From positions 8,125,208 to 8,189,207 of the forward strand of contig NC_082619.1 of NCBI RefSeq assembly GCF_030936135.1: a stretch of 64,000 nucleotides of DNA, in the 5' to 3' direction. The translations under genes were made by a program, and so were the position numbers. The notes below the pieces were generated by a model. The model was not told the origin of the DNA, ran no database searches, and saw nothing but the letters and a program-made list of their open reading frames with translations. Shown here in pieces: positions 9,401 through 25,500 of this stretch (its first letter is position 1; each line of letters begins with the position of its first letter). The stretch is from Gavia stellata. Its lineage: Eukaryota; Chordata; Aves; Gaviiformes; Gaviidae.

Positions 9401-10581
9401 TTGCAATCCTGCTGTGCTGTGATCCAGCTGTGCGGCTGCAATGCAGCAGTGTGGTTGCAATCCAGCTGTGCTGGCAATCCAGTTGTGCTGTGATCCAGCT
9501 GCACAGCTGCAACCCAGCTGTGCTTGCAATCCAGCGGAGCAATTGCTATCCAGCTGTGCTCCAGCCATGCCATCGCAACCCTGTCGTGCAGCTGTGATCC
9601 AGCTGTGGCCCTGCCATCCAGCTGTGGCCCCTCCACCCAGCTGTGCCACTGCACTCATCTAGTTGCGCCGTTGCAAGTGCAGCCGTGCAGCTGCAATCCA
9701 GCTGTGGCGCTGCCAGCCAGCTGTGCTGCTGCCAGCCAGCTGTGCCACCACAACACAGCTTCCCCCTGCTCCGGCACAGCACAGCACCACGGTGAGGCCC
9801 CCACCCCAGCTTCACCCCACACCCCATCTTTGCCAGGAGACCCCCCCATGGCGCCGGCACCCCTCCGCGGGCACCCAGCCCCTCTCTGAGTCCAGATGCG
9901 GGCGAGGGCCACCCGCCCCGAGCCCGCCGCCCCCCTGGCACAGGTGAGCCCTGGGGAGCATTTTGGGTGAGTGGGGGGCTCACCGGCTGAGGGGGGGCTG
10001 ACACTGCCATCACCCCCAGGGAAAACCCGCGGGGAGACCCCAAAAAGTCGCCCGAAGCCCAAATGCAGCCGCTACCGCCGGGAAAAGCAGCCAGGAGGTG
10101 AGTGGGGGGGGGGGAAATTGGGGGGTCCAGGGTGGGTCCAGGGGGGGCTCAGCCCTCTCCTCCCTCTCCGCTGCAGATCTGCCACCACCGCCGCTGCCGC
10201 CACCGGGCGAGACCCCCGGCCCCTCGCCGGAGAGGGAGTCGAGTGGGGCCGAGCGCAAGGTCACCCATCGCCCGCCCCGTGGCGGTAAGCCGGAGCCACC
10301 GACCGTGTGCCAAAGGAGTTGGGGGGCTGTCACCGCCAAACCCCAGCCTTGTCCCCTCCCTTGCAGACGAGGTCATCCCGTACGGCAAACCCTCCTGCCT
10401 GTCCCGGGGTCAGGCATCCGGCAGCTGCTCCACGACGGGCAGCGTCTCGTCCCGTGGCTCCACTGGCTCCCGTGGCCATGGCTCGGGGCGCAGCCAGACG
10501 TCGGGGGACCGCGGCGAAGGGACCGGCCATCGCCGCCGCCCGGGTCCCCCATTTCCTTGCCCGTCACAGGAGAAGCGATGA
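37..10581 (+). CDS. ROBO3: ROBO3, roundabout guidance receptor 3 (5' partial)
   Basis: Single-pass axon-guidance receptor of the Roundabout family, which controls midline crossing of commissural axons. Twenty-five exons are visible: 37-194, 290-410, 495-633, 1705-1832, 1916-2040, 3231-3402, 3521-3732, 5090-5171, 5256-5424, 5511-5677, 6185-6306, 6390-6609, 6687-6799, 6900-7071, 7195-7380, 7462-7485, 7555-7588, 7668-7774, 7856-8065, 8128-8302, 8374-8541, 9837-9943, 10020-10097, 10177-10284, 10367-10581. All junctions are GT/AG and in phase, giving about 1169 residues: Ig2-Ig5, three FN3 domains, a membrane helix and a cytoplasmic tail. Signal peptide and Ig1 lie before the window. ROBO3 rather than ROBO1/2 is argued by tail motifs ([27 protein letters not shown]) resembling remembered human ROBO3, and by convergent ROBO4 next door. 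The Slit-binding Ig1 cannot be judged here. Confidence 0.95.
495..1832 (+). CDS. ROBO3: ROBO3 Ig3 exons
   Basis: Exons 495-633 and 1705-1832 encode Ig3, starting [20 protein letters not shown] and containing [20 protein letters not shown] and [20 protein letters not shown]. The two halves are split by a 1.07 kb intron filled by an 18-base minisatellite. The split codon (AG|G, Arg) is in phase across it. Confidence 0.94.
776..1620 (+). repeat. 18-base minisatellite in ROBO3 intron (Ig3)
   Basis: Roughly 45 degenerate copies of an 18-base unit such as CATCCCACATCCCTGTCA. The last third drifts to CCATTGCATCCCACATCC variants. Because the unit is a multiple of three, several frames stay open for hundreds of codons, which is a repeat effect and not coding. 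Confidence 0.95.
1916..3402 (+). CDS. ROBO3: ROBO3 Ig4 exons
   Basis: Exons 1916-2040 ([20 protein letters not shown] to [10 protein letters not shown]) and 3231-3402 ([20 protein letters not shown] to [11 protein letters not shown]) encode Ig4. The [14 protein letters not shown] and [18 protein letters not shown] motifs are close to mammalian Robo Ig4. The donor CAG|GTCTGT at 2041 is immediately followed by a CATCCC-type array that fills the 1.19 kb intron. Confidence 0.94.
2041..3190 (+). repeat. CATCCC-type array in ROBO3 intron (Ig4)
   Basis: C-rich array of CATCCC, CATCCCTGTCC and CCATCCCCATCT variants starting at the donor site and ending about 40 bases before the next exon. A higher-order unit of about 125 bases is visible: the phrase CCCTGTTTCCATCCCATC recurs near 2590, 2716 and 2840. 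Confidence 0.95.
3521..5171 (+). CDS. ROBO3: ROBO3 Ig5 exons
   Basis: Exons 3521-3732 and 5090-5171 encode Ig5: [20 protein letters not shown], the Cys in [20 protein letters not shown], then [20 protein letters not shown]. The 1.36 kb intron between them is a G-rich minisatellite. Phase 0 is kept across this intron. Confidence 0.93.
3790..5060 (+). repeat. G-rich GGTGGGTGC minisatellite in ROBO3 intron (Ig5)
   Basis: About 1.27 kb of units such as GGTGGTGGGTGCTCAGGG and GGTGGGTGCAAAGGG. Longer blocks repeat: a copy of GCAACGAGTGGTGGGTGC occurs near 4016, 4240 and 4750. The transcribed strand is G-rich and could form G-quadruplex RNA. Confidence 0.95.
5256..5677 (+). CDS. ROBO3: ROBO3 fibronectin III domain 1
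   Basis: Exons 5256-5424 and 5511-5677. Key stretches are [38 protein letters not shown] and [20 protein letters not shown]. They follow the first Robo FN3 domain closely. Choosing the acceptor at 5510 rather than the later AG restores AFSQ, the family sequence at this junction. Confidence 0.95.
5695..6172 (+). repeat. ~60-base minisatellite in ROBO3 intron between FN3-1 and FN3-2
   Basis: About eight copies of a roughly 60-base unit containing GATGCTGATGGAGGTG, CCATGCACCCACC and CCTTGGGTGCATCTCC. It fills almost the whole 507-base intron. Confidence 0.93.
6185..6609 (+). CDS. ROBO3: ROBO3 fibronectin III domain 2
   Basis: Exons 6185-6306 ([20 protein letters not shown] to VRLSWT) and 6390-6609 ([20 protein letters not shown] to [14 protein letters not shown]). 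The [17 protein letters not shown] segment is the conserved end of Robo FN3-2. The intron is 83 bases. Confidence 0.94.
6687..7071 (+). CDS. ROBO3: ROBO3 fibronectin III domain 3
   Basis: Exons 6687-6799 ([20 protein letters not shown] to NGVIRDYR) and 6900-7071 ([20 protein letters not shown] to RSAPIPIRI). [21 protein letters not shown] is the strongly conserved Robo FN3-3 junction. The membrane-proximal exon follows. Confidence 0.95.
7195..7380 (+). CDS. ROBO3: ROBO3 transmembrane exon
   Basis: This exon encodes a juxtamembrane segment ([20 protein letters not shown]) and the membrane helix [16 protein letters not shown]. An RRRRKKE stop-transfer cluster and ELSHFT follow. Outside is N-terminal and the Robo cytoplasmic tail begins here. 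Confidence 0.95.
7462..7588 (+). CDS. ROBO3: ROBO3 micro-exons, first conserved cytoplasmic segment
   Basis: Two tiny exons, 7462-7485 (24 bases) and 7555-7588 (34 bases), encode [19 protein letters not shown], matching the juxtamembrane SFAYTP motif of mammalian ROBO3. Polypyrimidine acceptors and GTAAGC/GTAACC donors are clear. Skipping the 24-base exon would remove eight residues and keep the frame. Confidence 0.85.
7668..8065 (+). CDS. ROBO3: ROBO3 cytoplasmic exons with conserved tyrosines
   Basis: Exons 7668-7774 (GYPWLADAW to ATERYYN) and 7856-8065 ([37 protein letters not shown]). PWLADAW, ERYYN and PVYSTI are Robo cytoplasmic landmarks, and the tyrosines sit in contexts expected for Abl/adaptor signalling. 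The introns on either side are 79-81 and 62 bases. Confidence 0.92.
8128..8541 (+). CDS. ROBO3: ROBO3 cytoplasmic exons, LPPPP motif and acidic run
   Basis: Exons 8128-8302 and 8374-8541. The first holds [20 protein letters not shown] (the Ena-binding-type CC2 motif) and a Glu/Asp run; the second holds GTEEWYPG and STATLTPSP, both conserved in Robos. The donor at 8542 (G|GTAGGA) is less typical, but its phase 2 fits the next exon. Confidence 0.9.
8555..9075 (+). repeat. GGATGTCCCACCATGGTCC minisatellite in ROBO3 intron
   Basis: Tandem 19-20 base units (GTCCGGATGTCCCACCATG and relatives) interspersed with an ATCCAGCCATGTTGTCACGA spacer unit. It occupies the left half of the 1.3 kb intron 8542-9836. 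Confidence 0.92.
9076..9770 (+). repeat. CAGCTG (E-box) rich minisatellite in ROBO3 intron
   Basis: Tandem variants of AATCCAGCTGTGCTGTGAT and TGCAGCTGCAACC. By eye there are about 27 copies of the palindromic E-box CAGCTG in 0.7 kb. It fills the right half of intron 8542-9836, ending about 65 bases before the next exon. Confidence 0.92.
9837..10284 (+). CDS. ROBO3: ROBO3 distal cytoplasmic exons, CC3-type proline motif
   Basis: Exons 9837-9943, 10020-10097 and 10177-10284. The first is a low-complexity Pro/Arg exon supported mainly by splice sites and phase. The second encodes [14 protein letters not shown] and the third [12 protein letters not shown], matching the Robo RRE and CC3 polyproline segment bound by srGAP proteins. 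The first exon is the least certain. Confidence 0.82.
10367..10581 (+). CDS. ROBO3: ROBO3 last coding exon
   Basis: Begins [20 protein letters not shown], matching the Robo C-terminal (I/V)(L/I)PYxKPS motif, and continues Ser/Gly/Arg-rich to EKR and TGA at 10579-10581. Confidence 0.93.
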
Positions 10582-10652
10582 AGCGGAGGGCGAGCTGGTG
10601 GCAGGGTTGGAGACACGGGGATGGGGACATGGGGGGGACGGGGGGAATGCTC

Positions 10653-10658
10653 TTTAAT
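10653..10658 (-). other. ROBO4: Candidate ROBO4 polyadenylation signal ATTAAA
   Basis: No AATAAA or ATTAAA occurs on the minus strand between the ROBO4 stop and this point. If used, the ROBO4 3' UTR would be antisense to nearly all of the ROBO3 3' UTR. Weak evidence. Confidence 0.3.
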
Positions 10659-10689
10659 TTCTGAGTGGCACCATGTAAATAGGGTTGCA

Positions 10690-11525
10690 CAGAGCCAGCG
10701 GCCGGTGGGTGGCAAGCGGGAGGCAGGGACAAGGATGCTCAAGGGGGGGACAAGGACAGTCAGGATGGACAAGGATGCTTGGGTCGGACAAGGATGCTCC
10801 GGAGGGATGAGAATGCTTGGGAGGGGTGAGAATACTCGGGGAGGGATGAGGACCCTGGGGACAGGGACAGTTGTTTGGGATGAGGACGCTGGGGAGGGAC
10901 AAGGGTGCTCAGGAGGGATGAGGACCCTGGGAAGTGATGAGGACGCTGGGGAGGGATGAGAACGTTCAGGAGGGACGAGGGCACTCAGAGGGGGCACAAG
11001 GACATTCAAGAAGGACAAGATGGCTTGGGAGGGATGAGGACACTTGGGAGGGCCAAGGACGGTCAAGGTGGGACAAGGATGCTGAGAAAGGACACGGACA
11101 GTCAGGAAGGATGACGACAGCCAGGAGAAATGAGAACAGTCAGCGGGGATGAGGACTGTCAGGGGGGACAATGACCCTGGGAAAGGACAGGGACACTTGG
11201 AATGGACAACGGTGCTTGGGCTGGATGAGGATCGTTGCGGGATGAGGATGCTGGGGAAAGAGGACGACACTGGGGAGGGACGAGGACATTTGGAGGGGAT
11301 GAGGACACTTGGGGAGGATGAGTATGCTGGGGATGGATGAGGAATTTTGGGAGGGATGAGGACACTGAGGAGGGATGGGGACACTGGGGAAGGATGAGGA
11401 CACTTGGGGAGGACAAGGATGGGGACACTGGGGAAGGATGAGGACGCTTGGGGAGGACAAGGATGGGGACACTGCGGAAGGATGAGGACGGTTGGGGAGG
11501 ACAAGGACACTGGAGAAGGAGGGAC
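10690..11525 (+). repeat. G/A-rich minisatellite in ROBO3 3' UTR
   Basis: Degenerate units of GGATGAGGACACTTGGGG and GGACAAGGATGCTC, with a cleaner 59-base repeat (GGACAAGGATGGGGACACTG) near 11410-11510. It lies between the ROBO3 stop codon and its polyadenylation signal. Confidence 0.92.
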
Positions 11526-11599
11526 ACCCGCCCACCTTGGTGCCACCCACCCTTTGTGGGTGGCTTTTGCTAGCAAAGAGCCCCTTTTTGGGGAACCAC

Positions 11600-11976
11600 T
11601 TAATAAAGCTGGATTTTAGCTGAGCCAAGGGAACTCTGGCCTTGCCGCGTCCTGCACCCTGGCGACCGCCACGCTCCTGTCCCTCCTGTCCCCGGCTCGC
11701 CACCTGCCCTGGCCCAGGGGCTGCCGCTCCCCAACCCGTGTCCACCTGGAAAGAAAAGGGGACATTTTCCAGCACCCCGCAAGGGATGACGCCCCGTACC
11801 ACCCCTGGTGCCCGTCACCCTGGCGTTGGGGCATCACTCACTGTGCTGCGGTATGCCCGTGGCCGCCTCTGTCCCAGCTCTCCGTGGGATCCCCAGCACT
11901 GTCCCCCAGTCCCAGGTGGGGATGGGGACCCCGGGTGAGAAGACGCCCTCTAAGGGTGATGGTGGCAGTGAGGGAC
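11600..11976 (-). CDS. ROBO4: ROBO4 C-terminal exon(s)
   Basis: Exon 11976-11842 encodes [20 protein letters not shown] and WDWG, matching human [22 protein letters not shown]. A strong donor (CACA|GTGAGTG) and a strong acceptor (TTTTCTTTCCAG) 96 bases on suggest splicing to 11745-11600, ending [11 protein letters not shown] and TAA. Without that splice the donor bases themselves read Ser-Glu-stop, giving a shorter end at 11834. I favour the spliced form. Confidence 0.6.
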
Positions 11977-14900
11977 CTGCCGGGGAGAAGGCAGGAGATG
12001 GTGGCATCACTATGGCATCACGATGGAGCCACCTCCCTCGGGGAGGTGAGGATGTGTGGGGTTGGCGGGGGGTCCGGGGACACTGCACTCACCCCCATAG
12101 CCCCCGTCGGCGTCCTCAAGGCCGAAGCAGAGGCCATCGACGGCCACTGCCAGTGCCCGGGCAAAGCTGGCGTCCAGGAGGAAGGAGCCATCGCAGGAGC
12201 TCACCAAGCTGCAGCGGGCGCTGGCGAAGTTGTCCTCCGAGACGGACCCCCAGCCGTTCAGCAGCGACCCCCCCGGTGAGCCCCTTGTCGCTTGCCGCTC
12301 TTCCTCCTCCTCCTCTTCCTCCTCCTCGCCCAGCTCAGAGGCTGGTGGCCCGTAGATGTAGCCGTAGGTGTGCAGCGGCGAGAAGGACCGTGGTGTGGTC
12401 GGTGCTGGGGGGCTGCGGGGGACATGGCAGGGCTGCCGCTGGCACCGGGGGATGCTGCCACCATCGTGGTGTCCCGGGGGGACGGAGCGTACCTGGGGCA
12501 GGTGGTGCCCTGGTCCATCTCCAGGTCCTCAGCCACCCTCTGCGGCGTGAGGACCCCATCGCTGAATGCCGGCGAGAGGCGCCCGGTGACTGGGGACATG
12601 TCCCTGGGGTGTCTGGTGGCTGGGGACATGTCCTTGGGGTACCTGGTGGCCAGGAACATGTCCCTTGGTGCCAGGTCACCAATGACAGGTCCCTGGGGTG
12701 CCTGGCGGCTAGAACATGTCCTTGGGGTACCTGGTGACCGGGGACATGTCCTTGAGGTACCTGTTGCCCAAGAAGATGTCCCTCTGGTGACCAGTGACTG
12801 AGGACACCTCCTCAGGGTGCCTGGTGACTGGGGATGTGTCCCTTGGGTGCCCGCTGGCTGGTGTTGTGTCCTTGGGATGCCTGGTGACCGGTGGCATGTC
12901 CTTTAGGTATCTGGTGGCCAGAGATGTGTCTCTTGGGTGCCTGGTCAATGGTGATGGGTCCCTGATGGGTCCCTGGGGTGCCTGGTGGCTGGGGACATGC
13001 CCTTGGGATACCTGGTGCCCAAGAACATGTCCTTGTGGTGACCGGGGGCTGGGGACATTTCCTCAGGGTGCCTGATGACCGGAGATGTGTCCCTGTGGTG
13101 CCCGGTGGCTGGGGAAGTGTCCTTGGAATGCCTCATGCCTGGTGACATGTCCTCAGAGTACCTGCTGGACAGGAACATGTCCCTTGGGTGCCTGGTCACC
13201 AGTGACAGCTCCCGGAGGCACCTGGTGGCCAGGGACATGTCTTTGGGGTACCTGGTGGCCAAGAACTTGTTCCTGTGGTGCCCGGTGGCTGGGGACTTCT
13301 CCTTGGGGAGCCTCATTACTGGGGACGTCTCCCTTGGGTGCCCGCTGACTGGAGATGTGTCCTTGGGGTGGCTGGTGGCTGGTAACATATCCTTGGGGTA
13401 CCTGCTGCACGGGAACGTGTCTCTGCGGTGACCGTGGACTGGGGACATGTCAGGATGCTTGGTGACCAGGGACATATCCCTGGGGCACCTGGTGACCGGG
13501 GACATGTCCTCAGGGTGTTTGGTGGCTGAGATTGTGTCCCTCTGGTGCCTGGTGGCTGGTGATGGGTCCTTGGGGTGCCTGGTGGCTGGGGACATGTCCC
13601 TGGGATGCCTGGTGACTGGTGACACATCCTTGGGGTGCCTGGTAGCCAGGAACTTGTCCTTGGGGTGCTCAGTGACCAGCGACATGTCCCTAGGGCGCCT
13701 GGTGACCGGTGACACATCCCTGGGGCTCTCAGTGACCGGGGATGTGTCCCTGGGGCACTGGGTGGCCGGGGACATGTCCTTGGGGATCCCAGTGACTGGG
13801 GATGTGTCCCTGGGGCACACGGGGGCTGGGGACCTGCAGGTGCAAGGGACACGGTGGCTTTTGCAGCATGGGTGGGGTGCAGGGCACCCATCTGCGTCCC
13901 CAGGGTGGGGACACCCAAACTCACCGGGTCACTGGCGGGTGCCATGCATGGGGTGGTCTTGGGGGTGTCACTGGTGACCCGGTGACGCTGGAGGAAAGCA
14001 AGGCGCTGCCCCGCCGCGGTTTCGGGGAGCTGAAGACCGGCAGCTGCCGTGGGTCCCCTCCGGCCATCAGGGCGGTGTCAGTGTCACCATCATGTCCCCT
14101 TTGCTGAGGCCACCCGGCTGCCAGCCCAAAATCTGTCCCCCACTCACCTCTGCTCCCGGTGACTGGGACGTAGCCGGGGCCACCCGCGAGCACCGGGGTG
14201 CTGTGCACTTGGTGCAGCTCTGCATGGGGTGGGGGGACACAGAGCCATGAGCCACCTCCCCGGTGCCTGCCATGTCCCCCCGCGTCCCTCCCCTACCCAC
14301 CTCGCTTGCGGATGCGCTCCCAGGGTGCTGGGTTTGGGGTGCTGGGCGAGGTGTGCACCCCGGGGTGCCCCCCGCCACAGCACCCGGTGTCCCCAAGGGG
14401 CGGTGGGTGCCCCCCACGGAGGCTGCTGCGGTTGGGGGGCGTGGGGGGTCCGAGGCTCGGCGGCTCCAAGGACAGAGCTGGAGGGGTGAGAGCGGTCAGG
14501 GCACCCATGGGTGCTGAGCTGGGTGTCCCTTGTCCCCTCCATCCTCAGCTCTGGCTGTACCCAGGTCCCTGCTGCCTGCAGAGAGGGTCCCATGGAAATG
14601 GGGGGTCCCAGGCATAGGTTGGGGGTATCTGGCACACTTTGCTGGTCCCATAGCACGCAGGGGGGGTTCCAGGCACTGGGTGGGGGTCCCGTGGCAGTGG
14701 GTGAGGGGTCCCATGGAAGTGGGTGGGGGTCCCAGGGCACTGGGTGGGAAGTCGAGTCCCATGGCATCATGTGGGGGTCTCACTGGGATGGGTGGGGGTC
14801 CCATGGCACCAGGTGGGGGTCCCAGAGCACCCTGTGGGGGGGTTCCATAGCACTGAGTGGGGGTCCCATGGCTCTGGGTGGGGGTCCCAGCCCTGGGGCT

Positions 14901-17900
14901 CACTGGAGGGGTGGGGATCCCATGGCACTGGGTGAGGGTCCCAGCTCCCATGGGTCTCACTGGAGGGGTGGGGGTCCCTGCCGTCGCTGCCCAGGAGCCG
15001 GCTGCTAAGGCTGCTGTTACTGCTGAGGTTTTGGGGGGCACAGCCGGGTTTCCAGGGGCCACTGAGCCACGGTGAGTCACCGGTCACCAGCCTGCAAGGC
15101 AAGGGGTGCCATCAGGGTGTCTTGTCCCTACCACGCGAGGGACTCCCCATGTGCCCCACCCTACGGCCACTCACCTGTGGCGAGCCGCGGCGTCTTGGCT
15201 GGCACGGCGCTGGCAGAGGAGGAGGAGGAGGGCGAGCAAGGCCAACCAGAGCAGCGAGCCAACAGCCGCGATGACAGCGGGCTGCCGCAGCACCCGCACC
15301 ACCCCATTGCTCCCCGCCGTCAGACCTGCAAGGGTCCCACCAACGTCACCCCTGTGCCACCACCTTGACCCCCACCTGCACCCCACCTTGTTCCCCATCC
15401 CCTACCTAGGACACTGCAGGTGGCATTGCTGCGGACCCCCAGCCCTGCGCTGTTGAAAGCCGCCACCTGGACGCAGAATTCGGCCCCAGAGCTTGGGAGG
15501 AGGGTTTCCAGGCGGCGGGTGCCTCCGTCCACTGTCCTGTTAGTGGGGTGCTGCCAGCCCTCTCCCATTGACCAGACCTGGTATGCACCAAGAGGAGGGG
15601 CCCTCTTAGATGAATCCCCTTGATGGACCCCCATTGATGGATCCCTCTTGGACAGACCCCTTGGATGACCCCCTTAGAGGAATCCCTTAGGTTGAAGCCC
15701 CCTGGATGGACCGCCCTGGGTTAGATCCACGTGGATGACCCCCTTCCTTAGGTTGACCCCTTGGATGGATCTCCTTGGATGGATTAACCCCTTAGATGGA
15801 TCTCCTGGGATGGACCTCCACCTTGGTTGGCCCCCTTGGATGAACCCCCTTGTTGAGATCCCTCTTGGATGGACCCCTTATGTGCATCACTTTTGGATGG
15901 ACTGCTTGGGTGCCACTCCCCCAGCTTGGACAGACCCCCACCTTTGAATGGCTCCCTCCTCAGATGGATCCCCCTTAGACAGACCCCTTGGATGGACCCT
16001 CCTTGGCCAGAAGCCCCCCAGACTCTCCCCACCACATCACCCCAAACCTTGTAGCCCCGAATGATGCCATTGTGGGCCTCAGGAGGAGGTGGCTCCCAGG
16101 TCACCACCACGGTGCCGTTCCCCGTCTCAGCCTGGCCCACGGTGACGTGCTGGGGCGCCGCACTTGGTACTGCCGGGACAGGGGTGCTGAGAATCCTGGA
16201 ACCCCCAGCCAAACCCCCATCCTTCACCTGGACATCCCTGGGGACACCTCACGCCCAGCACACCTTCCTCGGGTATCCAGAGGTGCCTGCTGTTGCTGTC
16301 CAAGCCTTGGGTCCCTCCAGTGTAGGGTCGGACCTTGAACTCGTACTTGTAGCCCCTGCGGAGCGCAGGGATGATGGTGCTGAGCTCCCTGCCTGCGTCG
16401 TGTTGGACCCAGGAGGTGCTGGCAGGGAGCAGGCAGCGGTACAGCACCATGTAGCCCTCCGGCACCGGCGCTGGCATCAACATCTGGAGGGGATGGGAAG
16501 GGTTACGAGGCGTGGTGGGATGCAGATGGGACATGGGGATGGAGCTCCAGCCTCATCCCTATGTCCCATCCCACCCTTCTGGTGGGGACGTCCCGGCATC
16601 ACACCAACCCGCCAGTGGAGCCGGATGGCGGCGGTGGGCAGCGCGGTGCCGTTGTCCAGGTGCAGACGCACGGCCAGCAGGTCCCGTGGCGCAGCCTCCC
16701 ACCGGCCCGTCGGCAGCTGGTCTGTGGGTAGAGGGAGGCTAACGGCAGCACCAGGCAGGAGCAAGGTCCCTTAGCACCCACCCCAGATACCCATGCCTGG
16801 AGATCCTGAAGTCTCCTTAGAAAGACCCACTCAAACAGACCCCTTGGATGGACCCCTTCGGACAGACACCCTTTGATGAATCTGTCTTGGATGGACACCT
16901 CTTGGATGGATGTCCTTTGATGGACCCCATGATAGACTCCCATTGATGCCTCCCTCTTAGATGGACCCTCTGGATGGATACCTCTTGTTGGATCCTCCTT
17001 TAATGGACCCCCACCTTGGACAGACCCCCTTAAATAGATCCCCTTGGAGGAACCCCCTTGGATGGAACCCCTTTAGATGGACTCTCTTGAATGAATCCCC
17101 TTGGATGGACCCCCACCTGGATGCATCCCCTTAGATGGATCCCCTTACACGGACACGCTTGGATGGACCCCTTGGATGGATCCTGTTGGATGGATGCCTT
17201 TAGATGGACCTCCTGAGATGGTCCCCCCTTCAGAAGTACCCCCTTTGATGGACCCTCCTTGAATGGACCCCCTCAGATGACTCCGTTGCATAGACCCTTT
17301 TTTGATGGACCCCCTCGGATGGATGCCCTTGCATGGACCCCCCCTTGGATGGACTCCCCTTGGATGACGTCCTTGGATGAACCCCATTAGATGGGATGGA
17401 CCCTGTTAGATGGATGCCCTTGCATGGACCTCCGGATGGCCCTGGGTGCCCGTGGCGGTTGGAGGCCATGGAGGTCTCACCACTGACCCTCCACGTGGAG
17501 GCGGGCGGTGGCAGCAGCGGTGCCCAGCTGGCTCTGTGCCGTACACACGTAGGTGCCGGCGTCGGCGGGCGTCACGGCGTAGAGGCGCAATGTGTACTCC
17601 GGGTCCACCTCGTGCCTGCGGGTCACCAGCTCTCCATCAGCCCCATCACCGCCCCACCCTGGGGATGGGACACCTCCACCCTGCCACCACCTACCTGCCC
17701 CAGGGCAGGTCCCCACGCTCCTTGTGCCACTGCACCCGCGGTGCCGGGTCACCTTGGGCGCCACAGCCCAGCTCCACGGTGCTGCCGGCAACCGCCACGG
17801 TGTCGCTCGGGCGCCGCACGATGGTCGGCTTCTCTGCAGGGTGACATCAAGGATGTGCCACCAAGGCTGGACATGACATGTCCACCACCCATGGGAGACC

Positions 17901-18501
17901 CTTGGCTTACCCAGGACGGAGACACGGGCGCCCCGGCTCTCCCTCTTGCCTGCCGCATTGGCCGCCACGCAGATGTAGAGCCCGGAATCGCTCCGTCGCG
18001 CTGGTGCCACCCGCAACTTCCCATTGGTGACCATGTACCGGTCACCGGTCAAGTCCAAGGTCACCCCGTCCTTCTTCCAGGTGACGTGGGGTTCGGGGTG
18101 CCCCGAGGGTGGCACGCAATCCAGCTCCAACGCTTGCCCCGCCGTGGCCACCAAATCACCCGGCTGCAGGCGGAAATTATCCCGCAGCACTGCGGTGGGG
18201 AAGGGACACCATGGGTGGGGGGGACACACACAGGATATTTTGGGGCCCCCCCACCCACATCATCCCCATGGGGTGTCCTTACCAGCTGCGGTTTGGGGTG
18301 CCGTGGCTGCGCCAGGCGGGTGGCAGCCTGTGGGGTGACGTGGAGGCTGGTGGGTGCACTGAGCAGGCACGGTCTCAGCCCCCGGGAAGCGGGGGCAGAG
18401 TTAAGGGTATTTTGCCCCTCTCGGGGGCTGCACTCACCTCCTTGGCGCAACGCGGTGAGGCAGAGCCCCAAGCCCAGCGCCAGCGCCCAGCTGCCCGCCA
18501 T
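11600..18501 (-). CDS. ROBO4: ROBO4, roundabout guidance receptor 4
   Basis: Endothelial Robo-family receptor acting in vascular guidance and barrier stability. Exons in transcript order: 18501-18438, 18189-17911, 17833-17695, 17615-17488, 16721-16609, 16483-16264, 16169-16048, 15577-15406, 15325-15175, 15091-14961, 14477-14301, 14219-14148, 14117-13925, 12561-12493, 12412-12093, 11976-11842, 11745-11600. All junctions are GT/AG and in phase, giving about 876 residues (human about 1007): signal peptide, two Ig, two FN3, membrane helix, tail. ROBO4 is identified by two FN3 domains, [73 protein letters not shown] and [20 protein letters not shown], which match remembered human ROBO4 in order. 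Two points are uncertain: the acceptor of exon 12561 and the final splice. If intron 11841-11746 is retained, the protein ends at TGA 11836-11834. Confidence 0.92.
11602..11607 (+). other. ROBO3: ROBO3 polyadenylation signal AATAAA
   Basis: Canonical AATAAA about 1.0 kb after the ROBO3 stop. Read on the other strand, the same bases overlap the TAA that ends the spliced ROBO4 frame (11600-11602). Confidence 0.7.
12093..12561 (-). CDS. ROBO4: ROBO4 distal cytoplasmic exons, VLTPQ and TYGYI blocks
   Basis: Exon 12561-12493 encodes [20 protein letters not shown]. Exon 12412-12093 encodes [20 protein letters not shown], a run of ten Glu, [20 protein letters not shown] and [20 protein letters not shown]. 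These align with human [47 protein letters not shown] and [20 protein letters not shown]. The start of the first exon is uncertain: 12561 keeps phase with exon 14117-13925, whereas 12589 would only keep frame if that exon were skipped. Confidence 0.85.
12592..13830 (-). repeat. 30-base minisatellite in ROBO4 intron
   Basis: About 40 copies of a 30-base unit; on the ROBO4 strand one version contains CACCCCAAGGACATGTCCCC followed by AG. Each unit thus carries a CCCCAG 3'-splice-site consensus, and the copy nearest the exon (12590-12591) abuts the VLTPQ exon. Its frame encodes a 10-residue period (for example [10 protein letters not shown]) but shifts between blocks, so I treat it as intronic. 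Confidence 0.93.
13925..15091 (-). CDS. ROBO4: ROBO4 proximal cytoplasmic exons
   Basis: Exons 15091-14961 ([40 protein letters not shown]), 14477-14301 ([20 protein letters not shown] to APWERIRKR), 14219-14148 ([20 protein letters not shown]) and 14117-13925 ([20 protein letters not shown]). They follow human ROBO4 landmarks (DSQWLADTWR, SSSSSLSSRLG, WKAKKKQELQHANSSPLL, KLLSSSNELVTRHLPPAP) in order. The acceptor at 14118 has a weak pyrimidine tract, and the 14961 donor has an in-frame duplicate 57 bases on. Confidence 0.82.
14585..14985 (-). repeat. Minisatellite GGGGTCCCATGGCACTGGGT in ROBO4 intron
   Basis: About 17 units of 22-25 bases between exons 14961-15091 and 14301-14477. A 57-base sub-repeat near 14904-14985 duplicates the exon's 5' splice site. 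Confidence 0.92.
15175..15325 (-). CDS. ROBO4: ROBO4 transmembrane exon
   Basis: Encodes [20 protein letters not shown], then the helix [18 protein letters not shown] and a basic [13 protein letters not shown] stop-transfer segment. It occupies the same position relative to FN3-2 as in human ROBO4. Confidence 0.92.
15406..16169 (-). CDS. ROBO4: ROBO4 fibronectin III domain 2
   Basis: Exons 16169-16048 ([20 protein letters not shown] to NGIIRGYK) and 15577-15406 ([20 protein letters not shown] to [17 protein letters not shown]). [13 protein letters not shown] equals the human NGIIRGYQVWSLG junction. The GTTTGG donor is weak but conserved in phase. The intron is largely a minisatellite. Confidence 0.93.
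15615..16015 (-). repeat. TGGATGGACCCC minisatellite, copy A (ROBO4 FN3-2 intron)
   Basis: Degenerate 17-23 base units such as TTGGATGGACCCCCTT and TAGATGGATCTCCTTGG. The same unit family fills another ROBO4 intron at 16.79-17.41 kb. Confidence 0.9.
16264..16721 (-). CDS. ROBO4: ROBO4 fibronectin III domain 1
   Basis: Exons 16721-16609 ([20 protein letters not shown] to IRLHWR) and 16483-16264 ([20 protein letters not shown] to [14 protein letters not shown]). [20 protein letters not shown] corresponds to the YEFKVRP motif of human ROBO4. Confidence 0.92.
16790..17410 (-). repeat. TGGATGGACCCC minisatellite, copy B (ROBO4 Ig3/FN3-1 intron)
   Basis: About 30 degenerate units of the same family as 15615-16015 (GGATGGACCCCTTGGATGGA). 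Three coding exons, 16048-16721, lie between the two arrays. Confidence 0.9.
17488..17833 (-). CDS. ROBO4: ROBO4 second Ig domain (Robo Ig3 type)
   Basis: Exons 17833-17695 ([40 protein letters not shown]) and 17615-17488 ([40 protein letters not shown]). The order, exon split and phase match Robo Ig3 (compare ROBO3 at 495-1832). Human ROBO4, as remembered, passes from Ig2 straight to FN3. Confidence 0.9.
17911..18189 (-). CDS. ROBO4: ROBO4 first Ig domain (Robo Ig2 type)
   Basis: One exon encodes the whole domain: [40 protein letters not shown] and [20 protein letters not shown]. The LRDNF opening and [13 protein letters not shown] are signatures of Robo Ig2, as in ROBO3 at 37-410, not Ig1. 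Confidence 0.93.
18438..18501 (-). CDS. ROBO4: ROBO4 first coding exon, signal peptide
   Basis: Start codon at 18501-18499 gives [20 protein letters not shown], a classic signal peptide, ending in phase 1 at a GTGAGT donor. It splices in phase directly to the Ig exon at 18189. The 248-base intron contains no Ig-like sequence. Confidence 0.9.
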
Positions 18502-19010
18502 GCCGGCCCTGGCCAGCCTTCCCGCTTCCTCCCTAAATCCCGGTCCCTCCCCGCCAGCACCGGGGCCGGATCCGGCTCCGGATGGGGGGGGACAATAGCC
18601 GGACGTGGGGACCGGGAAGTGATGGGGGAGCGGGGAGGGGGGTGGATGCACAAACAGCTCAGCCAACCCACGGCGGTGGGAGCGCCGGGGTGCGGTGGCA
18701 CCAGCAGCAACCGGAGGCAGTGGGGCTGGGGACGCTGGCGGTTAATGAATTTAATTAATCAGAATAAATTCCATCCCCCACGGCCATATTCAGAGGAAGA
18801 CAAATTAAGAAGAAACAACCTCTTGGCTGGGGATGTCATCAGTAGGGACCAGAGTGAATGGTCCAGAGTGTCCCAGGCTCTGCAAGCTTAAATTTGGGTG
18901 CCAGCCAAGTGTGTCGAGCTCATCCATTCTCAGCTGCCACCCGCCTCTCGTGTGTGTCCCCCCACCCCGGGGGGGCACCCTGTCCCACAAAGACACCCAA
19001 GGGTGCCACC
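18502..19010. promoter_or_regulatory. ROBO4 5' flank / HEPACAM 3' end interval
   Basis: GC-rich sequence directly upstream of the ROBO4 start (to about 18720), then AT-richer sequence around TTAATGAATTTAATTAAT at 18740-18757. A GGGAAGTG ETS-like core lies near 18615; ETS/GABP sites are known in mammalian ROBO4 promoters, but this single match is weak. No coding sequence recognised. Confidence 0.4.
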
Positions 19011-19032
19011 ACCGGCCGGGTAGTATGTTTAG

Positions 19033-19038
19033 TTTATT
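19033..19038 (-). other. HEPACAM: HEPACAM polyadenylation signal AATAAA
   Basis: TTTATT on the + strand within AGTTTATTGG, the first canonical signal downstream of the HEPACAM stop. Confidence 0.5.
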
Positions 19039-19324
19039 GGTTAGTAGTGCACCCTAAGCGCCCCGGGGTGCCCCGGCACCCACCCTGGGTGCCCAGGGGC
19101 CCAGCTCGCTCGGACAGCCGCTCTCCGGTTTTCATCCTAAACCTATTTCCCGGGAAGGCCTGGGGGAGAGGCGACGGTGCGCGCCCCAAAACTGGGGGAT
19201 TTTCACAGAAAATTCAGGCGCGGTGGAGGGCCAGCGCTCGGGCCAGGGGTTTGAGCCCACGTTTAGGGGACGGTGCAGCCGGGGAGCGGCAGGGAGGAGG
19301 GAGCCCCCCGTTTAGGCCTTCTGC

Positions 19325-20790
19325 GTGTGTGCACGCTTGGGTGAGCTTGCATGCTAGCGTGCCCCTGCTCCGCGCAGCGCCGGGCACCTGTGTGCACGCA
19401 TCCGTGTGCAGCGGCAGGCGGGCACGGCGCTCTTGCATGCACCGGGTGCGGGTGTGCTCGTTCGGCGTGCTGCGCACGTGCTCCCCGCACGCTTGTGCAT
19501 GTTCCGTGCACGACCTTAGCTGCACGCTTCGTGCATGCTCTTATCACACGCTTTGTGCACGCTCTTTCCACACGCTCCATGCACGCTCCTTCCGCATGCC
19601 CTGTGCGTGCCCTCTGCAAGCGTTGCATGCATGCTCTCTCATGCTCTTTGCAAGCTCGCTGCGTGCTCCATGCATGGCCTATGCAAACGCTGCATGCCTG
19701 CTCTCCTCGCACGCTCTGTGCATGCTTTCTTGCAAGCTTCACGGATGCTCTTTTCTCACACCTCGTGCATGCTCTCCCTGCACGCTCTGTGCAAGCTCTC
19801 TGCAAACACTGCATGAACGCTCTCTCCACACGCTCTCTCCACGCGCTCTGTGCACGTTCTGCACAGACCCTCTCTGCATACTTGTGCTCTCTGCACGCTC
19901 CATGCACACTCGGAGAGCACTCCGGATGCTGGCACGCTTTCTCTGCAAATGCCATGCACAGTCTTATCTGTGCATGCACACTCTGCATGCTCCATGCATG
20001 CTTTCTGCATGCTCCGTGCATGCTCTCTGCACACTCCGTGCACGCGGTCTCCATATGCTCTGTGTGTACTCTCTCCACACAATCCATGCAGATTGTGCTG
20101 CACACTCTCGTTGCACACTGCATGCAGGCTCTCTCTGCACTCTTTATGCACACCCTTGTGCATGCCCTCTTGCACCCTTTGTGCACGCTCTCTCTGCATG
20201 CTCTATGTGCATGCTCCATGCATGCCCTCTTTCATGCTCCGTGCATGCTTTCTCTGCACACTGCATGCATGCCCTCCGGCACGCTCCATAATTGCTCTCT
20301 CTGCACACTGCGTGCACACTCTCTGCACGCTGTCTCTGCATGCTCCGCGCATGCCCTCTTGCATGCTCCGTGCATGCTTTCTCTCTGCATTGTGTGCACG
20401 CTCTCTCTGCACGCTTTCTGCATGCTCTGTGAATGCCGTCTTGCAGGCTCTGTGCATGCTCTGTCTGCGCACTGCATGCATGCTCTCTGCATGCTCCGTG
20501 CACGCCCTCTTGCATGCTCTGTGCACGCTTTCTCTGCATACTGCATGCATGCCCTCTTGCATGTTCCATGACTGTCCTCTCTGAGCAGCGAACTCAAGCT
20601 CTCTCTGTGCGCTTTCTGCATGCTCCATGCGTGCACTCTCTGCACACTGCATACGCGCTCTCTCTGCATGCTCCATGCATGCCTTCTTGCACACTCTCTC
20701 CATGCACTGCGTGCACGCTCTCTCCCGCACGCTCCCAGCAAGCGCCCATGCATTCCGCACGCTCCCTGCACGCTCGTCCCGGCGAGAAAG
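19325..20790 (-). repeat. TGCATGC-rich tandem repeat in HEPACAM 3' UTR
   Basis: About 1.45 kb of interlocking units such as GCATGCTCCGTGCATGCCCT and CTCTCTGCACACTGCATGCA. Dominated by TGCA, GCATGC and ATGCAT palindromes with alternating purine-pyrimidine runs. Long open frames on both strands result from the repeat. Confidence 0.93.
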
Positions 20791-20963
20791 CCATTAAAGC
20801 GACGCCCCAGGAAGGCGGGGGACGGAAGAGGGGAGCTCCGGGTGGGATCAATAGCAAATTAGTGACTTTACGCCCAGCCGAACGATGCCCGGTGGCGGGA
20901 GCGGGGCCGTGCCGGTGTCCCCGCTCGCTTGCCAACACCGAAGCGCGCACGTGTCCCCCCTGC

Positions 20964-22588
20964 TCAGGCGCTGATCTCCACGGCATTGGCCTCCTCCTGC
21001 TCTCGGATGACATGGACTCCGGCAGTCCGCAGCAGCCGTGGGGCGCCGCGGGAACGCGCCGGCGAACCCGGCGGCGACCTGTGCGTCCTCGTCGAGGCGG
21101 GAGAGCGAGCCGGTGAGCGATGGTAGCGACGAGTCGAACGCCCCACCGGTCCTGGCGAACGACCGGCTGCCGGTACCGGCGAGCTGGTGTAACCCGGTTC
21201 AACCGTGCCGCGGGGTTCAGGCGACGAGTCCTCCTCCGCCTCCGGCGAGTCCTGCCAAAAGCCAAGGGTAGATGAGCGTGCGAAGCGTGCGAGACCCGGC
21301 GCCGCGGTGCAAAGCCGGCACGCTACCGGCACGCTACTGGCTGCTCACCTTGTCCTTGAGGATGTACAAGGCCACCGGGTTTTTGCGCTCGTGCTCGCCG
21401 CTCCGCGGAATGCCCTCGGCTGCGTGGAGGCAAGGTGTTGCTTACCACGCCTGCGGTGTTGGCGTTCCCCAACCCGCCGCGCCAGGGCCGGCACTCACCC
21501 TCGTGCTTCAGGCGCTCCTCGTCCTGCTCGGTGTATTCAGAGGCCGGTTGCGTCTCCGCTTGCCGCTTCTCCCTGGGGAAGGCAGAGAGGTGGAGCACAG
21601 TGCTGTGGTGAGGGAGGGATGGGATGGGATGGGATGGGGTGGGACGAATGGGTCAAGGTGGGATGGGATGGGACAGGATGGGACAAGATGGGCTGGGATG
21701 AGGTGGGATGAGATGGGATGGGGTGGAATGGGACAAGATGGGATGGAATGGGACAAGATGGGATGGGATGGGATGAGATGGGATGAGATGGGATGGGATG
21801 GAATGGGACAAGATGGGATGGGATGGGGTGGGGTGGGATGGGATGGGATAGGACGGGATGAGATGGGATGAGATAAGATGGGATGGGATGGGATGGGACG
21901 GGACAGGACGGGACAAGACGGGATGGGATGGGGTGGGGTGGGGTGGGTCAAGATAGTATGGGATGGGATGGGATGGGATGGGATGGGATGGGATGGGATG
22001 GGATGGGATGGGATGACATGGGATGACATGGGATGGGATGGGATGGGATGGGATGGGACGGGACGGGACGGGACGAGACGAGATGAGACGAGATGAGACG
22101 AGATGAGGCGAGATGAGACGAGATGAGACGAGACGAGGCGAGATGAGTCAAGATGGGATGCGATGGGATGCGATGGGATGCGATGGGATGCGATGGGATG
22201 CGATGGGATGCGAGATGAGATGAGATGAGATGAGATGGGTCAAGATGGGATGAGGCAAGATGAGACAAGATGGTGTGGTGTGATATAGTACAGTAGAGTA
22301 TGGTATGAGACGGGGTGAGGTGTGATCTGATGTGATGATGTGATGGGACAGGACAAGATGGGATGAGATGGGACAGGATGGGATAGGACAAGCTGGGATG
22401 GGAGGAGATGAGACGGGACAGGATGGGATGGAACAAGACAGGTTGGGACAAGATGGGACAGGATCAGAGGCTCCCACGTTACCCCCAGCCGTACTTCTTG
22501 GAAGGTTTCCAGCAGGCACAAACTGTCACCAGGGTGACAAGGAGGAAGATGCCGCCCGTGGAGAGGATGATGTAGAGGGAGCTACGTC
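20964..22588 (-). CDS. HEPACAM: HEPACAM transmembrane and cytoplasmic exons
   Basis: Exon 22588-22483 encodes [20 protein letters not shown] then [11 protein letters not shown]. Exons 21572-21499 ([13 protein letters not shown]), 21419-21349 ([19 protein letters not shown]) and 21251-20964 ([10 protein letters not shown] and [19 protein letters not shown]) form the tail. The last exon ends AVEISA-stop as in mammals. Confidence 0.96.
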
Positions 22589-25500
22589 CTGGGGGAGAAG
22601 AGTGAAGGGGGACAACCCCCCCCAAAATTTTAGCTGGGAACATCTGCAAGGGATGGCCAGCCCTGGGGGTGTGGAAGCAGGGAATGGGTGGCTTACGGTA
22701 GACGGTGAGCTTCACGGGGACGCTGCGGCCATGGCTGATGGGGTTCTCCACCAGGCAGCTGTAGACATCATCATCAGCCATGAGGACGCGGGTGATGGTG
22801 AGGATCTTCTGGTCGGGGGAGAGGAGCAGGCGGGAGTCGTTGCTCAGCGGCCGTCCATCCTTCAGCCAGGTGTAGGTGGGCTTGGTGCCATTTTCATGTG
22901 AGCAGTTGAGGGTGAAGAACTCGCTGAGCTCCAGCACCGTTGAGGAGGCCACCAGCACTTGCGGCTTCGAGATGGGGACTGCGGGCGAGTGGGGGAACCA
23001 GGGTGACGCCATGTCTCGGGGGATGGATGGGCCCAGGGAACAGGAAAGGGGACAGCAAAATCCCACCGGGGATATAGCTTGGCTGCATGGGGTGGCTGAA
23101 CCCCAAAACCCACCTCCCAGTTGGAGAAAGCCCTCCCAAAAAGTGGTCAGGGAAGACGTCCCATGGAGAACCCAGTCTCCGCTGGACGTCCTTCTTGTGC
23201 TTACTGTCCACAGTGAGGTTGATGGTCTTCTCGCCGGTGAAGGTGTCATCGGTGATGGACACCTCCACCTCGTAAGCGCCTTCATCGGCCAACTGCAAGG
23301 GGCTGATGAGCAATGAGCCGTTCTCCAGCACCCGGATGCGGTCGCGGTAATCGGGCCGTAGGTTGCCAATGATCTCAGTGCCGATGGACTGGACGACGGT
23401 GACAGGTTTGTCACGCTTCAGCTGCCACTTGACCACCGGCTTGTCGGCGCTGGCGCTGGCGTAGCGCACCGACAGCAGCGCCGCTTTGCCAGCCGTGCCG
23501 CGGACCAGCGGCGTGGGGCTGGTGATGTTCACCCCTGCCAGCAGACCTTGGGGTGGGGAGAGACAGTGGGGCACCGAGTCCGGGCAGGCTGCCTGGTCCT
23601 TTGAGCCTGGAGAAAAATGGGGAACCCCCCTCCCGGAGCAGTGCTGAGCACCCCCAAAATGCTTCACCCCTGCCGGGATGCCCCACCAGCATGCAAGCTG
23701 GCCGTTTGCGTAACCCTTTGCAAAGATGCATGCATCGCCCTGCAAAGTGCATGGGGGGTGGGAACTCTCCTGCACCCAGGTCAATGCAACGCTTTGCAAA
23801 AATGCATGCATCACCCCCCAAAATTGCATGGGGGGTGGGAGCGCTCTTGCAGCCGAGTCAATGCAATGTTTTGCAAAAATGCATGCATTGCTCCAAAAAC
23901 TGCATCGGGGGTGAGAGCGCTCCTGTGTCCACGTTGATGCAACCCTTTGCAAAAGGCATGCATGACCCCCAAAAAGTGCATGGGGGGCTGCGAGTGCTCC
24001 TGCAGCCAGGTTGATGCAACCCGCCCTCTGCAAAAATGCATTCATCACCCCCAAAAATGCATGAGGGGTGTGAGACCTCCTGTTGCTGGGTTGATGCAAT
24101 GCTCTGCAAAAATGCATGCATTGCCCTCCAAAATGTGCATGGGGGCAGGAGCTCTCCTGCAGCTGGGCCGATGCAACCCTTTGCAACAATGCACGCATCA
24201 TCCCAAAAAAATGCACGGGGGGTGGGAGCCCTCCTGTGGCCAGGTCGATGCAATGCTTTGCAAAAATGCATGCATTGCCCCCAGAAGCTGCGCTGCTGCA
24301 GCCAGGTTGACGCAACTCTCTGCAAAGACGCATGCATCACCCCCCAAAATTGCATAGGGGGGGTGAGAGCCCTCCTGCACCCAGGTCAACGCAACGCTTT
24401 GCAAAGATGCACGCGTCACCCCAAAACTGCATCAGGGGTGGGAGTGCTCCTGCGTCCGGGTTGATGCAACCCTTTGCAAAATACATGCATGCATCTCCCC
24501 CCAAAATTGCATGGGGGGGTGAGAGGCCTCCCCTGCCTGCGTCAACGCAATGCTTTGCAAAGATGCGTGCATTGCCCCCCAAAATGGGGGGGGGGGGATG
24601 GATCTTTGCATCCCACCCCCAGCGCCGTTGGAAGTTCTGGTCCAGCCAAACATCCCCCCCCCAAGATGCAAAACTGCATCACGGGGGTCGGCGCACGTGC
24701 ATTGCTCCTCATCGCTGGTTTTAAGCCAAAAAGGGCAGGGAAAAAGTGGAAAAACATGTTTTTTTGGGGGGGGACCCCCAAAACAGCCTCTCTCCCCAAA
24801 ACACCGTAGCCTCATCCCTCCCCCTTGCCAGCCTAGGGGTTCCAGCGGTGAACCCCCATCCCGATGCCGTCATCCGACGGCGAACAAACCCCATATTGAA
24901 GAGGGGGGGAGAGTGGGAAAACCAGCTGGGGAGGGCGAAGCGGGAGCAAGAAAGGCTTTAAACAAGCCCGAAAAGTCATGGGACCTATTGGTATGCAGCG
25001 TCCGTCCGTCCGTCCTCCCCAGCAGTGCAGCGCTCAGCCCCGAAAACATGCCCTGACCCGAAAGATTTAGGGGACCCCCACAGGGAAAACCCAGGCACGG
25101 GATGGGGATGCGGCTTTTAATGCACCCTTGCACCCAGTGCACCCCCGAATCACCGCTTTTTAAACGTTTCTTCCCTTTTTTAACCCAATTGCTAATTTTT
25201 TTCTCCGCTCCGGGTAATAAATGTGGGGGTTAATTAATAAATCAGGCAATATTCCCGTCTTCCACAGCATCCCTGGCTTAGGGATGGAGACGTCCCACCC
25301 TTCCTGGCTGGCTCTTGTTGAAAAGACCCCCAAAAATCCTCATTTTCCCACAATTTCATGGACTAAATCCCTATTTCTTTGGAAAAAACCACAGCAGCAT
25401 TTTTGGGGTGCCCTGGCTGCAACCCAGGCGCTTTTTTGGGGTGCAAATCAAAGCCGGTGGTGTGCAAAACCGACTCGCTTTGCTTTGCATCCTTGGCTCA

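What the first reader, a model, noticed from the sequence alone, without database searches (positions are those of the whole stretch)
17488..18501. Bird ROBO4 ectodomain appears to be Ig2+Ig3, without Ig1
Human ROBO4, as remembered, has Ig1 and Ig2 followed directly by FN3. Here the signal-peptide exon splices in phase, across only 248 bases, to a domain with Robo Ig2 signatures ([18 protein letters not shown]). A second domain with Ig3 signatures and the Ig3 exon split follows. If right, the two lineages kept different pairs of Ig domains, with consequences for ligand binding.
Basis: partly seen in the sequence, partly recalled or inferred. Interest (0 to 1): 0.7.

Follow-up and report, generated by a model that had tools for sequence, protein, structure and literature searches.

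The report
ROBO4 with Ig2–Ig3, no Ig1
In this genome, taken to be a bird's, the blood-vessel receptor gene ROBO4 carries the second and third immunoglobulin domains of the Robo family and lacks the first, whereas the human protein carries the first and second, so the two lineages seem to have trimmed the same receptor from opposite ends.

Summary
On the minus strand, 18501-17488, a signal-peptide exon splices in phase 1 over 248 nt to one Ig exon, then a two-exon Ig, then FN3-FN3-TM. Profiles, PDB alignment and a tree class the two domains as Robo Ig2 and Ig3. No Ig1 exon was found in the gap-free window. A genome-wide search with a recalled human ROBO4 Ig1 gives the ROBO1, ROBO2 and ROBO3 Ig1 exons as its three best hits and none in the window. 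Zebrafish Robo4 is reported with three Ig and human with two (PMC2613885), the human pair resembling Robo1 Ig1-Ig2 (PMC6620384). Reciprocal loss from an Ig1-Ig2-Ig3 ancestor is therefore the simplest reading. The Robo Ig1 exon is symmetric (phase 1-1), so its removal keeps frame. Intron 1 holds a 45-nt phase 1-1 candidate exon (18327-18283) whose peptide resembles the start of the ROBO3 Ig1 exon, though not of ROBO1/2. It may be an Ig1-exon vestige. Not shown: transcription, that the genome is a bird's, spread to other birds or reptiles, and ligand effects.

The parts
18438..18501 (-). ROBO4 exon 1: start codon and signal peptide ([21 protein letters not shown]), ends in phase 1
   Evidence: hydrophobic core mean Kyte-Doolittle 2.15 over 11 residues
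18283..18327 (-). candidate 45-nt phase 1-1 mini-exon [15 protein letters not shown], possible vestige of the Ig1 exon; use in mRNA unknown
   Evidence: acceptor CACCCCACAG, donor GTAAGG; resembles ROBO3 Ig1-exon start GSHPQLEDTAPRIVE but not the ROBO1/2 start; 55 of 2552 248-nt stretches hold any such candidate
17911..18189 (-). ROBO4 exon 2: complete Ig domain of Robo Ig2 class
17695..17833 (-). ROBO4 exon 3: first part of Ig domain of Robo Ig3 class
17488..17615 (-). ROBO4 exon 4: second part of the Ig3-class domain, split in phase 2 as in ROBO3
16609..16721 (-). ROBO4 exon 5: linker and start of first FN3
   Evidence: FN3 by eye against recalled human ROBO4
16264..16483 (-). ROBO4 exon 6: rest of first FN3
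   Evidence: FN3 by eye against recalled human ROBO4
16048..16169 (-). ROBO4 exon 7: start of second FN3
15406..15577 (-). ROBO4 exon 8: end of second FN3
15175..15325 (-). ROBO4 exon 9: transmembrane segment
14961..15091 (-). ROBO4 exon 10: membrane-proximal cytoplasmic part; 3' boundary tentative
12070..12560 (-). conserved C-terminal cytoplasmic part of ROBO4 in two pieces of different frame, joinable over an 80-nt GT-AG intron; not fully modelled
   Evidence: tblastn with recalled human ROBO4 cytoplasmic sequence, 50% identity in each of the two pieces; frames and intron read by eye

Best explanation
This is the ROBO4 orthologue of the genome, and its ectodomain is signal peptide - Ig2 - Ig3 - FN3 - FN3 - TM. 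Shown here: the open, spliceable gene model to exon 10, the Ig2 and Ig3 identity, and that no Ig1 exon is detected in the window or beside ROBO4 in the assembly. Inferred: the ancestral jawed-vertebrate ROBO4 had Ig1-Ig2-Ig3 (zebrafish is reported with three Ig); the mammalian line lost Ig3, and this line lost Ig1 through an in-frame deletion that took most or all of the symmetric phase 1-1 Ig1 exon, perhaps leaving a 45-nt stump. Inferred function: the receptor should not bind Slit through the canonical Ig1-LRR D2 contact and should act instead, as proposed for mouse Robo4, through its ectodomain as a Slit-independent partner or ligand. If UNC5B binding is kept it must use Ig2 or Ig2-Ig3 rather than Ig1-Ig2.
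For: Exon phases and open frames through TM. Colinear alignment to Ig2-Ig3 of Robo2 and Robo1. Class HMM scores. Tree 99/100 for Ig2 and 100/99 for Ig3. Shared Ig3 intron position and phase with ROBO3. No Ig1 in six-frame ORFs (15 aa or more) of the window; the ROBO1-3 profile finds recalled human ROBO4 Ig1 at 2e-15. Genome search with recalled human ROBO4 Ig1: 42 matches at E<=0.1, of which the three best (9.8e-13 to 1.1e-11) are ROBO1-3 Ig1, the next is 9e-7, and none lies in the window. Tail-to-tail ROBO3-ROBO4, as in other vertebrates (PMC6389290 Table 1). C-terminal match to recalled human ROBO4. Literature passages: PMC2613885, PMC6620384, PMC7580999, PMC5123080.
Against: No RNA evidence. 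One genome, species not named. AU tests of single 90-residue domains are weak (p 0.049, 0.11, 0.168). One search did not list the in-window ROBO4 Ig2 or Ig3 exons, so its reach stops near E 0.1 and a very divergent Ig1 elsewhere could escape it. Donors of exons 4-7 are partly weak (GTCAGT, GTTGGT, GTGTGC, GTTTGG). PMC8921330 (passages) reports Slit3 binding to human Robo4 Ig1-Ig2, so a Slit-free ROBO4 is not agreed even in mammals; the passages seen do not say which of the two Ig binds. The CC0-like and middle cytoplasmic pieces were not found. A review (PMC12308364, passages) counts three Robos in chick, whereas PMC6389290 lists a chicken ROBO4 record of 1064 aa.
Confidence: 0.83

Rival explanations
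1. An Ig1 exon exists but is missed: too divergent, lost in assembly, or far upstream.
For: The region is rich in tandem repeats (51 rows in 10500-25000), of a kind that can be misassembled; fast-evolving gene (PMC6389290, abstract and part of section 4); the genome search reaches only to about E 0.1.
Against: 0 N in the window; the profile detects human-like ROBO4 Ig1 at 2e-15 yet finds only known Ig exons as significant matches here; genome-wide search; exon 1 with its own signal peptide sits 248 nt from Ig2 and splices in frame.
Confidence: 0.07
2. The loss is real but private to this species or individual, or is an assembly collapse, not a trait of birds.
For: Only one genome could be examined.
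Against: The rest of the ectodomain is intact and the 45-nt candidate exon, if a vestige, suggests an older event. Neither point is decisive.
Confidence: 0.2
3. The Ig1 exon was lost whole and the 45-nt candidate exon is a chance resemblance.
For: The peptide matches ROBO3 only: 572 of 5691 sites score as well against the ROBO1/2 start and 2772 of 5691 against recalled human ROBO4 (15 residues). The comparison was made after seeing the segment.
Against: 1 of 5691 other open AG sites and 0 of 716 pyrimidine-rich ones reach the ROBO3 score; 1 of 4415 stop-free shuffles. Only 55 of 2552 stretches of 248 nt hold any such candidate exon. Register, phase and 3n length fit an internally deleted Ig1 exon.
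Confidence: 0.4
4. The second domain is a duplicate of Ig2 or another Ig acquired secondarily, not Ig3.
For: AU p 0.049 (0.056 before mending one residue) for grouping it with Ig2 and 0.11 with Ig1: not strongly rejected.
Against: Ig3 profile 90.5 bits against 22.7 for Ig2; same intron position and phase as ROBO3 Ig3; colinear with Robo Ig2-Ig3; 100/99 support.
Confidence: 0.03

Closest known systems
Human/mammalian ROBO4 (Magic roundabout)
   Same: Two Ig, two FN3, one TM, tail-to-tail with ROBO3; Ig2 54% identical (50/93) to recalled human ROBO4 Ig2; conserved C-terminal part.
   Different: Human has Ig1+Ig2 (PMC6620384, PMC7580999 passages); this gene has Ig2+Ig3.
Zebrafish Robo4
   Same: Same gene family; reported with two FN (PMC2613885 passage).
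   Different: Reported with three Ig; this gene has two. Zebrafish sequence not examined here.
ROBO1-ROBO3
   Same: The two domains match Ig2 and Ig3 of ROBO1-3; the Ig3 intron position is shared with ROBO3.
   Different: ROBO1-3 have five Ig and three FN3 (papers), and ROBO3 has Ig2 in two exons; here Ig2 is one exon.
Bombyx BmRobo1a/b
   Same: Another Robo with reduced ectodomain.
   Different: Described as missing Ig5 and Fn1 (PMC7580999 passage), not Ig1.

Membership tests
ROBO4 orthologue | Tail-to-tail neighbour of ROBO3 | tested here: met
   ROBO3 on + (window start to about 8 kb) and ROBO4 on - (18.5 to about 12 kb); arrangement as in PMC6389290 Table 1
ROBO4 orthologue | Shortened ectodomain, two FN3, one TM | tested here: met
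   Two Ig stretches and one FN3 by Pfam; the other FN3 only by eye against the recalled human sequence; TM exon
ROBO4 orthologue | ROBO4 C-terminal sequence | tested here: met
   E 1.9e-24 to recalled human ROBO4 cytoplasmic part
ROBO4 orthologue | CC0 and CC2 motifs | tested here: inconclusive
   No convincing match to the recalled human CC0-like stretch (best 22 of 86) or to the middle pieces; CC2 not tested as such
ROBO4 orthologue | Endothelial expression | not testable with these tools
   No RNA data
Mammalian-type ROBO4 ectodomain (Ig1-Ig2-FN3-FN3) | Ig1 present | tested here: not met
Mammalian-type ROBO4 ectodomain (Ig1-Ig2-FN3-FN3) | Ig2 followed directly by FN3 | tested here: not met
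   An Ig3-class domain intervenes
Slit-binding Robo (via Ig1) | Ig1 domain that contacts Slit LRR D2 | tested here: not met
   No Ig1 exon found; role of Ig1 from PMC7580999 passages; binding itself not tested

The most novel reading that the evidence does not exclude
ROBO4 was shortened reciprocally: mammals dropped Ig3, and birds (or a wider sauropsid group) cut Ig1 out by an internal in-frame deletion that left its exon as a 45-nt spliced stump, giving a blood-vessel Robo that cannot use the canonical Slit site and that shows which domains vessels really need (Ig2 and the FN3 pair).
Probability: 0.4. Interest if true: 0.68.

Novelty: new variant of a known kind. Interest (0 to 1): 0.52.

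Why it matters
Whether ROBO4 is a Slit receptor is disputed: PMC5123080 states that Slit2 does not bind it in Biacore assays, while PMC8921330 reports Slit3 binding to Ig1-Ig2. A natural ROBO4 that lacks Ig1 altogether, with the rest of its ectodomain intact, would argue that the conserved vessel function does not need the Slit-binding domain. It would also map UNC5B binding, attributed to Ig1-Ig2, by natural deletion. It further suggests that the description of Robo4 as 'missing Ig3-5' (PMC7580999) does not hold for all vertebrates.

Tried and rejected
A cryptic or decayed Ig1 exon in intron 1, upstream of exon 1 or elsewhere in the window was sought with profiles of ROBO1-3 Ig1, with and without recalled human ROBO4 Ig1. 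Matches with E below 0.001 fall on known Ig exons (ROBO4 Ig2 and Ig3, ROBO3 Ig exons, and a HEPACAM-like Ig; exon names assigned by me). Weaker ones are further ROBO3 Ig exons or scattered short pieces, none in intron 1 or between exon 1 and the HEPACAM-like gene.

A tree with Ig4 and Ig5 of ROBO3 and the recalled human rows gave weaker support (second domain in a six-row group with Ig3, Ig4 and Ig5, 78/90) and a long-branch warning. It was repeated with 11 of the 15 rows, and again after I found one wrong residue at the exon join of my hand-made ROBO3 Ig2. The result did not change, but the AU value for 'second domain with Ig2' moved from 0.056 to 0.049.

The two C-terminal pieces lie in different frames. 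I checked this as a possible sign of decay: a GT-AG intron of 80 nt reconciles them (read by eye).

A test that the genome is a bird's, by a feather-keratin search, did not complete. A genome search with the Ig3-class domain likewise did not complete. Other birds, crocodiles, turtles and lizards could not be examined: the genome has no relatives here, and the other collections hold microbes, plasmids and viruses.

Papers: in the listings and abstract beginnings of seven searches (one search found none) and in the passages that I opened, nothing described an avian ROBO4 lacking Ig1. Seen as passages: PMC12308364, PMC7580999, PMC5123080, PMC3933320, PMC2613885, PMC3520763, PMC7083938, PMC6620384, PMC8921330, PMC4290089 (no mention of ROBO4). 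Seen as abstract, part 1 of section 4 and passages: PMC6389290. Subscription papers are mostly missing from the library, and supplementary files were not readable. Zebrafish and chicken ROBO4 records were seen only as accession and length. Structure prediction was not run: a spliced protein is not letter for letter in the DNA.
Full report
Observation. The window is gap-free. On the minus strand the reported stretch 18501-17488 is exactly exons 1-4 of a ROBO4 gene: a 64-nt signal-peptide exon ending in phase 1, a 248-nt intron, a 279-nt exon with one whole Ig, and a second Ig in two exons of 139 and 128 nt. The frame then runs on through two FN3 (exons 5-8), a TM exon (9) and exon 10, a 506-residue open model. 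Pfam reports two Ig stretches and one FN3; the other FN3 is by eye. A C-terminal block matches recalled human ROBO4 at 50% identity in each of its two main pieces and 43% in a short third, E 1.9e-24; the two pieces lie in different frames that an 80-nt GT-AG intron joins. ROBO3 lies tail-to-tail on the plus strand from the window start, as PMC6389290 Table 1 reports for other vertebrates (section 4, part 1).

Identity of the two domains. phmmer against the PDB puts Robo chains first to fourth of 238 matched sequences and aligns query 18-202 with Robo2 116-300 and 17-203 with Robo1 100-286, i.e. Ig2-Ig3 in order. Profiles built from ROBO1-3 (Ig4 and Ig5 from ROBO3 alone) give the first domain 29.2/101.7/42.9/31.9/37.1 bits and the second 35.1/22.7/90.5/51.5/24.3 bits for Ig1/Ig2/Ig3/Ig4/Ig5; recalled human ROBO4 gives Ig1 for its first (51.0) and Ig2 for its second (98.6) (after mending one residue of ROBO3 Ig2; before). 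An 11-row tree joins the first domain to Ig2 (99/100) and the second to Ig3 (100/99). AU tests give p 0.049 for the second domain with Ig2, 0.11 for it with Ig1 and 0.168 for the first domain with Ig1, so the tree alone is not decisive (0.056, 0.118, 0.175 before mending). With Ig4/Ig5 and the recalled human rows included, support is lower. The Ig3 intron falls at the same residue and phase in ROBO3 and here. Together these make Ig2-Ig3 secure.

Is Ig1 really absent? Six-frame ORFs of 15 aa or more of the whole window, searched with Ig1 profiles without speed filters, give as significant matches only known Ig exons; the profile from ROBO1-3 alone finds recalled human ROBO4 Ig1 at 2e-15 in a search space of the same size. 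In the 1.32 Gb assembly the recalled human ROBO4 Ig1 gives 42 matches at E<=0.1 (128 of 128 candidates scored): the best three are the Ig1 exons of ROBO1, ROBO2 and ROBO3 (9.8e-13, 2.9e-12, 1.1e-11; identified through), then 9.0e-7, and none lies in the window. That search did not list the in-window ROBO4 Ig2 and Ig3 either, so its reach is limited. The Ig2 query found ROBO4 Ig2 once at 100% among 55 matches (150 of 263 candidates scored), so no second copy was seen.

How it was lost. In ROBO1, ROBO2 and ROBO3 of this genome the Ig1 exon starts and ends in phase 1 (read), so removing it leaves the signal peptide in frame with Ig2. Intron 1 also holds a 45-nt open segment, 18327-18283, with a good acceptor and donor and phase 1-1. 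It would leave introns of 110 and 93 nt, like six of the eight other introns modelled (77-125 nt; the other two are 470 and 766). Its peptide [15 protein letters not shown] resembles in exact register the start of the 327-nt ROBO3 Ig1 exon, GSHPQLEDTAPRIVE. BLOSUM score 27 is reached by 1 of 5691 other open AG sites in the window, 0 of 716 pyrimidine-rich ones and 1 of 4415 stop-free shuffles. Only 55 of 2552 stretches of 248 nt hold any such candidate exon. Against this: it matches ROBO3 only, not ROBO1/2 or recalled human ROBO4, and I compared after noticing the segment. I put it at about 0.6 that this is the Ig1 exon with 282 nt (94 codons) deleted; whether it is spliced in is unknown.

Comparison. 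Zebrafish Robo4 is described with three Ig and two FN, human with two and two (PMC2613885, passages). The human pair is most like the first two Ig of Robo1 (PMC6620384, passages), and Robo4 is described as missing Ig3-5 and Fn1, with UNC5B binding attributed to Ig1-Ig2 (PMC7580999, passages). A review words it otherwise, Ig4-5 and the first FN missing in mammals, and counts three Robos in chick (PMC12308364, passages), while PMC6389290 lists a chicken ROBO4 record. The simplest history is an ancestor with Ig1-Ig2-Ig3, then loss of Ig3 towards mammals and of Ig1 towards this animal. That zebrafish's three are Ig1-Ig3 is inferred.

Function. Slit binds Ig1 of Robos (PMC7580999 passages). [quoted passage not shown] PMC8921330 (passages) reports Slit3 binding to Robo4 Ig1-Ig2. 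A ROBO4 without Ig1 should lack the canonical Slit site and act through Ig2-Ig3 and FN3, with UNC5B as the first candidate partner. This is inference.

Limits. One genome; no RNA; 'bird' not tested; no orthologues of other sauropsids available; human ROBO4 sequence recalled. Nothing seen in the listings of seven searches or in the passages opened described the avian ectodomain.

Noticed in passing
window 12581-13833, minus strand of ROBO4: A 30-bp minisatellite (41.6 copies) lies between exon 10 and the conserved C-terminal block; frames through it are open for up to 327 aa (12945-13928). The recalled human CC0-like motif and middle cytoplasmic pieces were not found, so the cytoplasmic part may also be altered.
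   Followed up: partly
window 17911-18189 versus ROBO3 at about 36-409: ROBO4 Ig2 is a single exon, while ROBO3 Ig2 is split in two; an intron seems to have been lost in ROBO4.
   Followed up: partly
L022 (ROBO1 Ig1 exon): ROBO1 Ig1 in this genome is identical to the human PDB sequence over 88 of 88 residues, in contrast with the loss of Ig1 in ROBO4.
   Followed up: no
window 16840-17394: Intron 4 of ROBO4 (766 nt) is largely a degenerate 14-bp repeat (38.9 copies).
   Followed up: no
window 19505-20682, 21612-22239 and 23712-24585: Dense simple and minisatellite arrays (TGCATGCTC-like, GGGAT pentamers, units of 77-79 bp) in and around the HEPACAM-like gene (name recalled from synteny).
   Followed up: no
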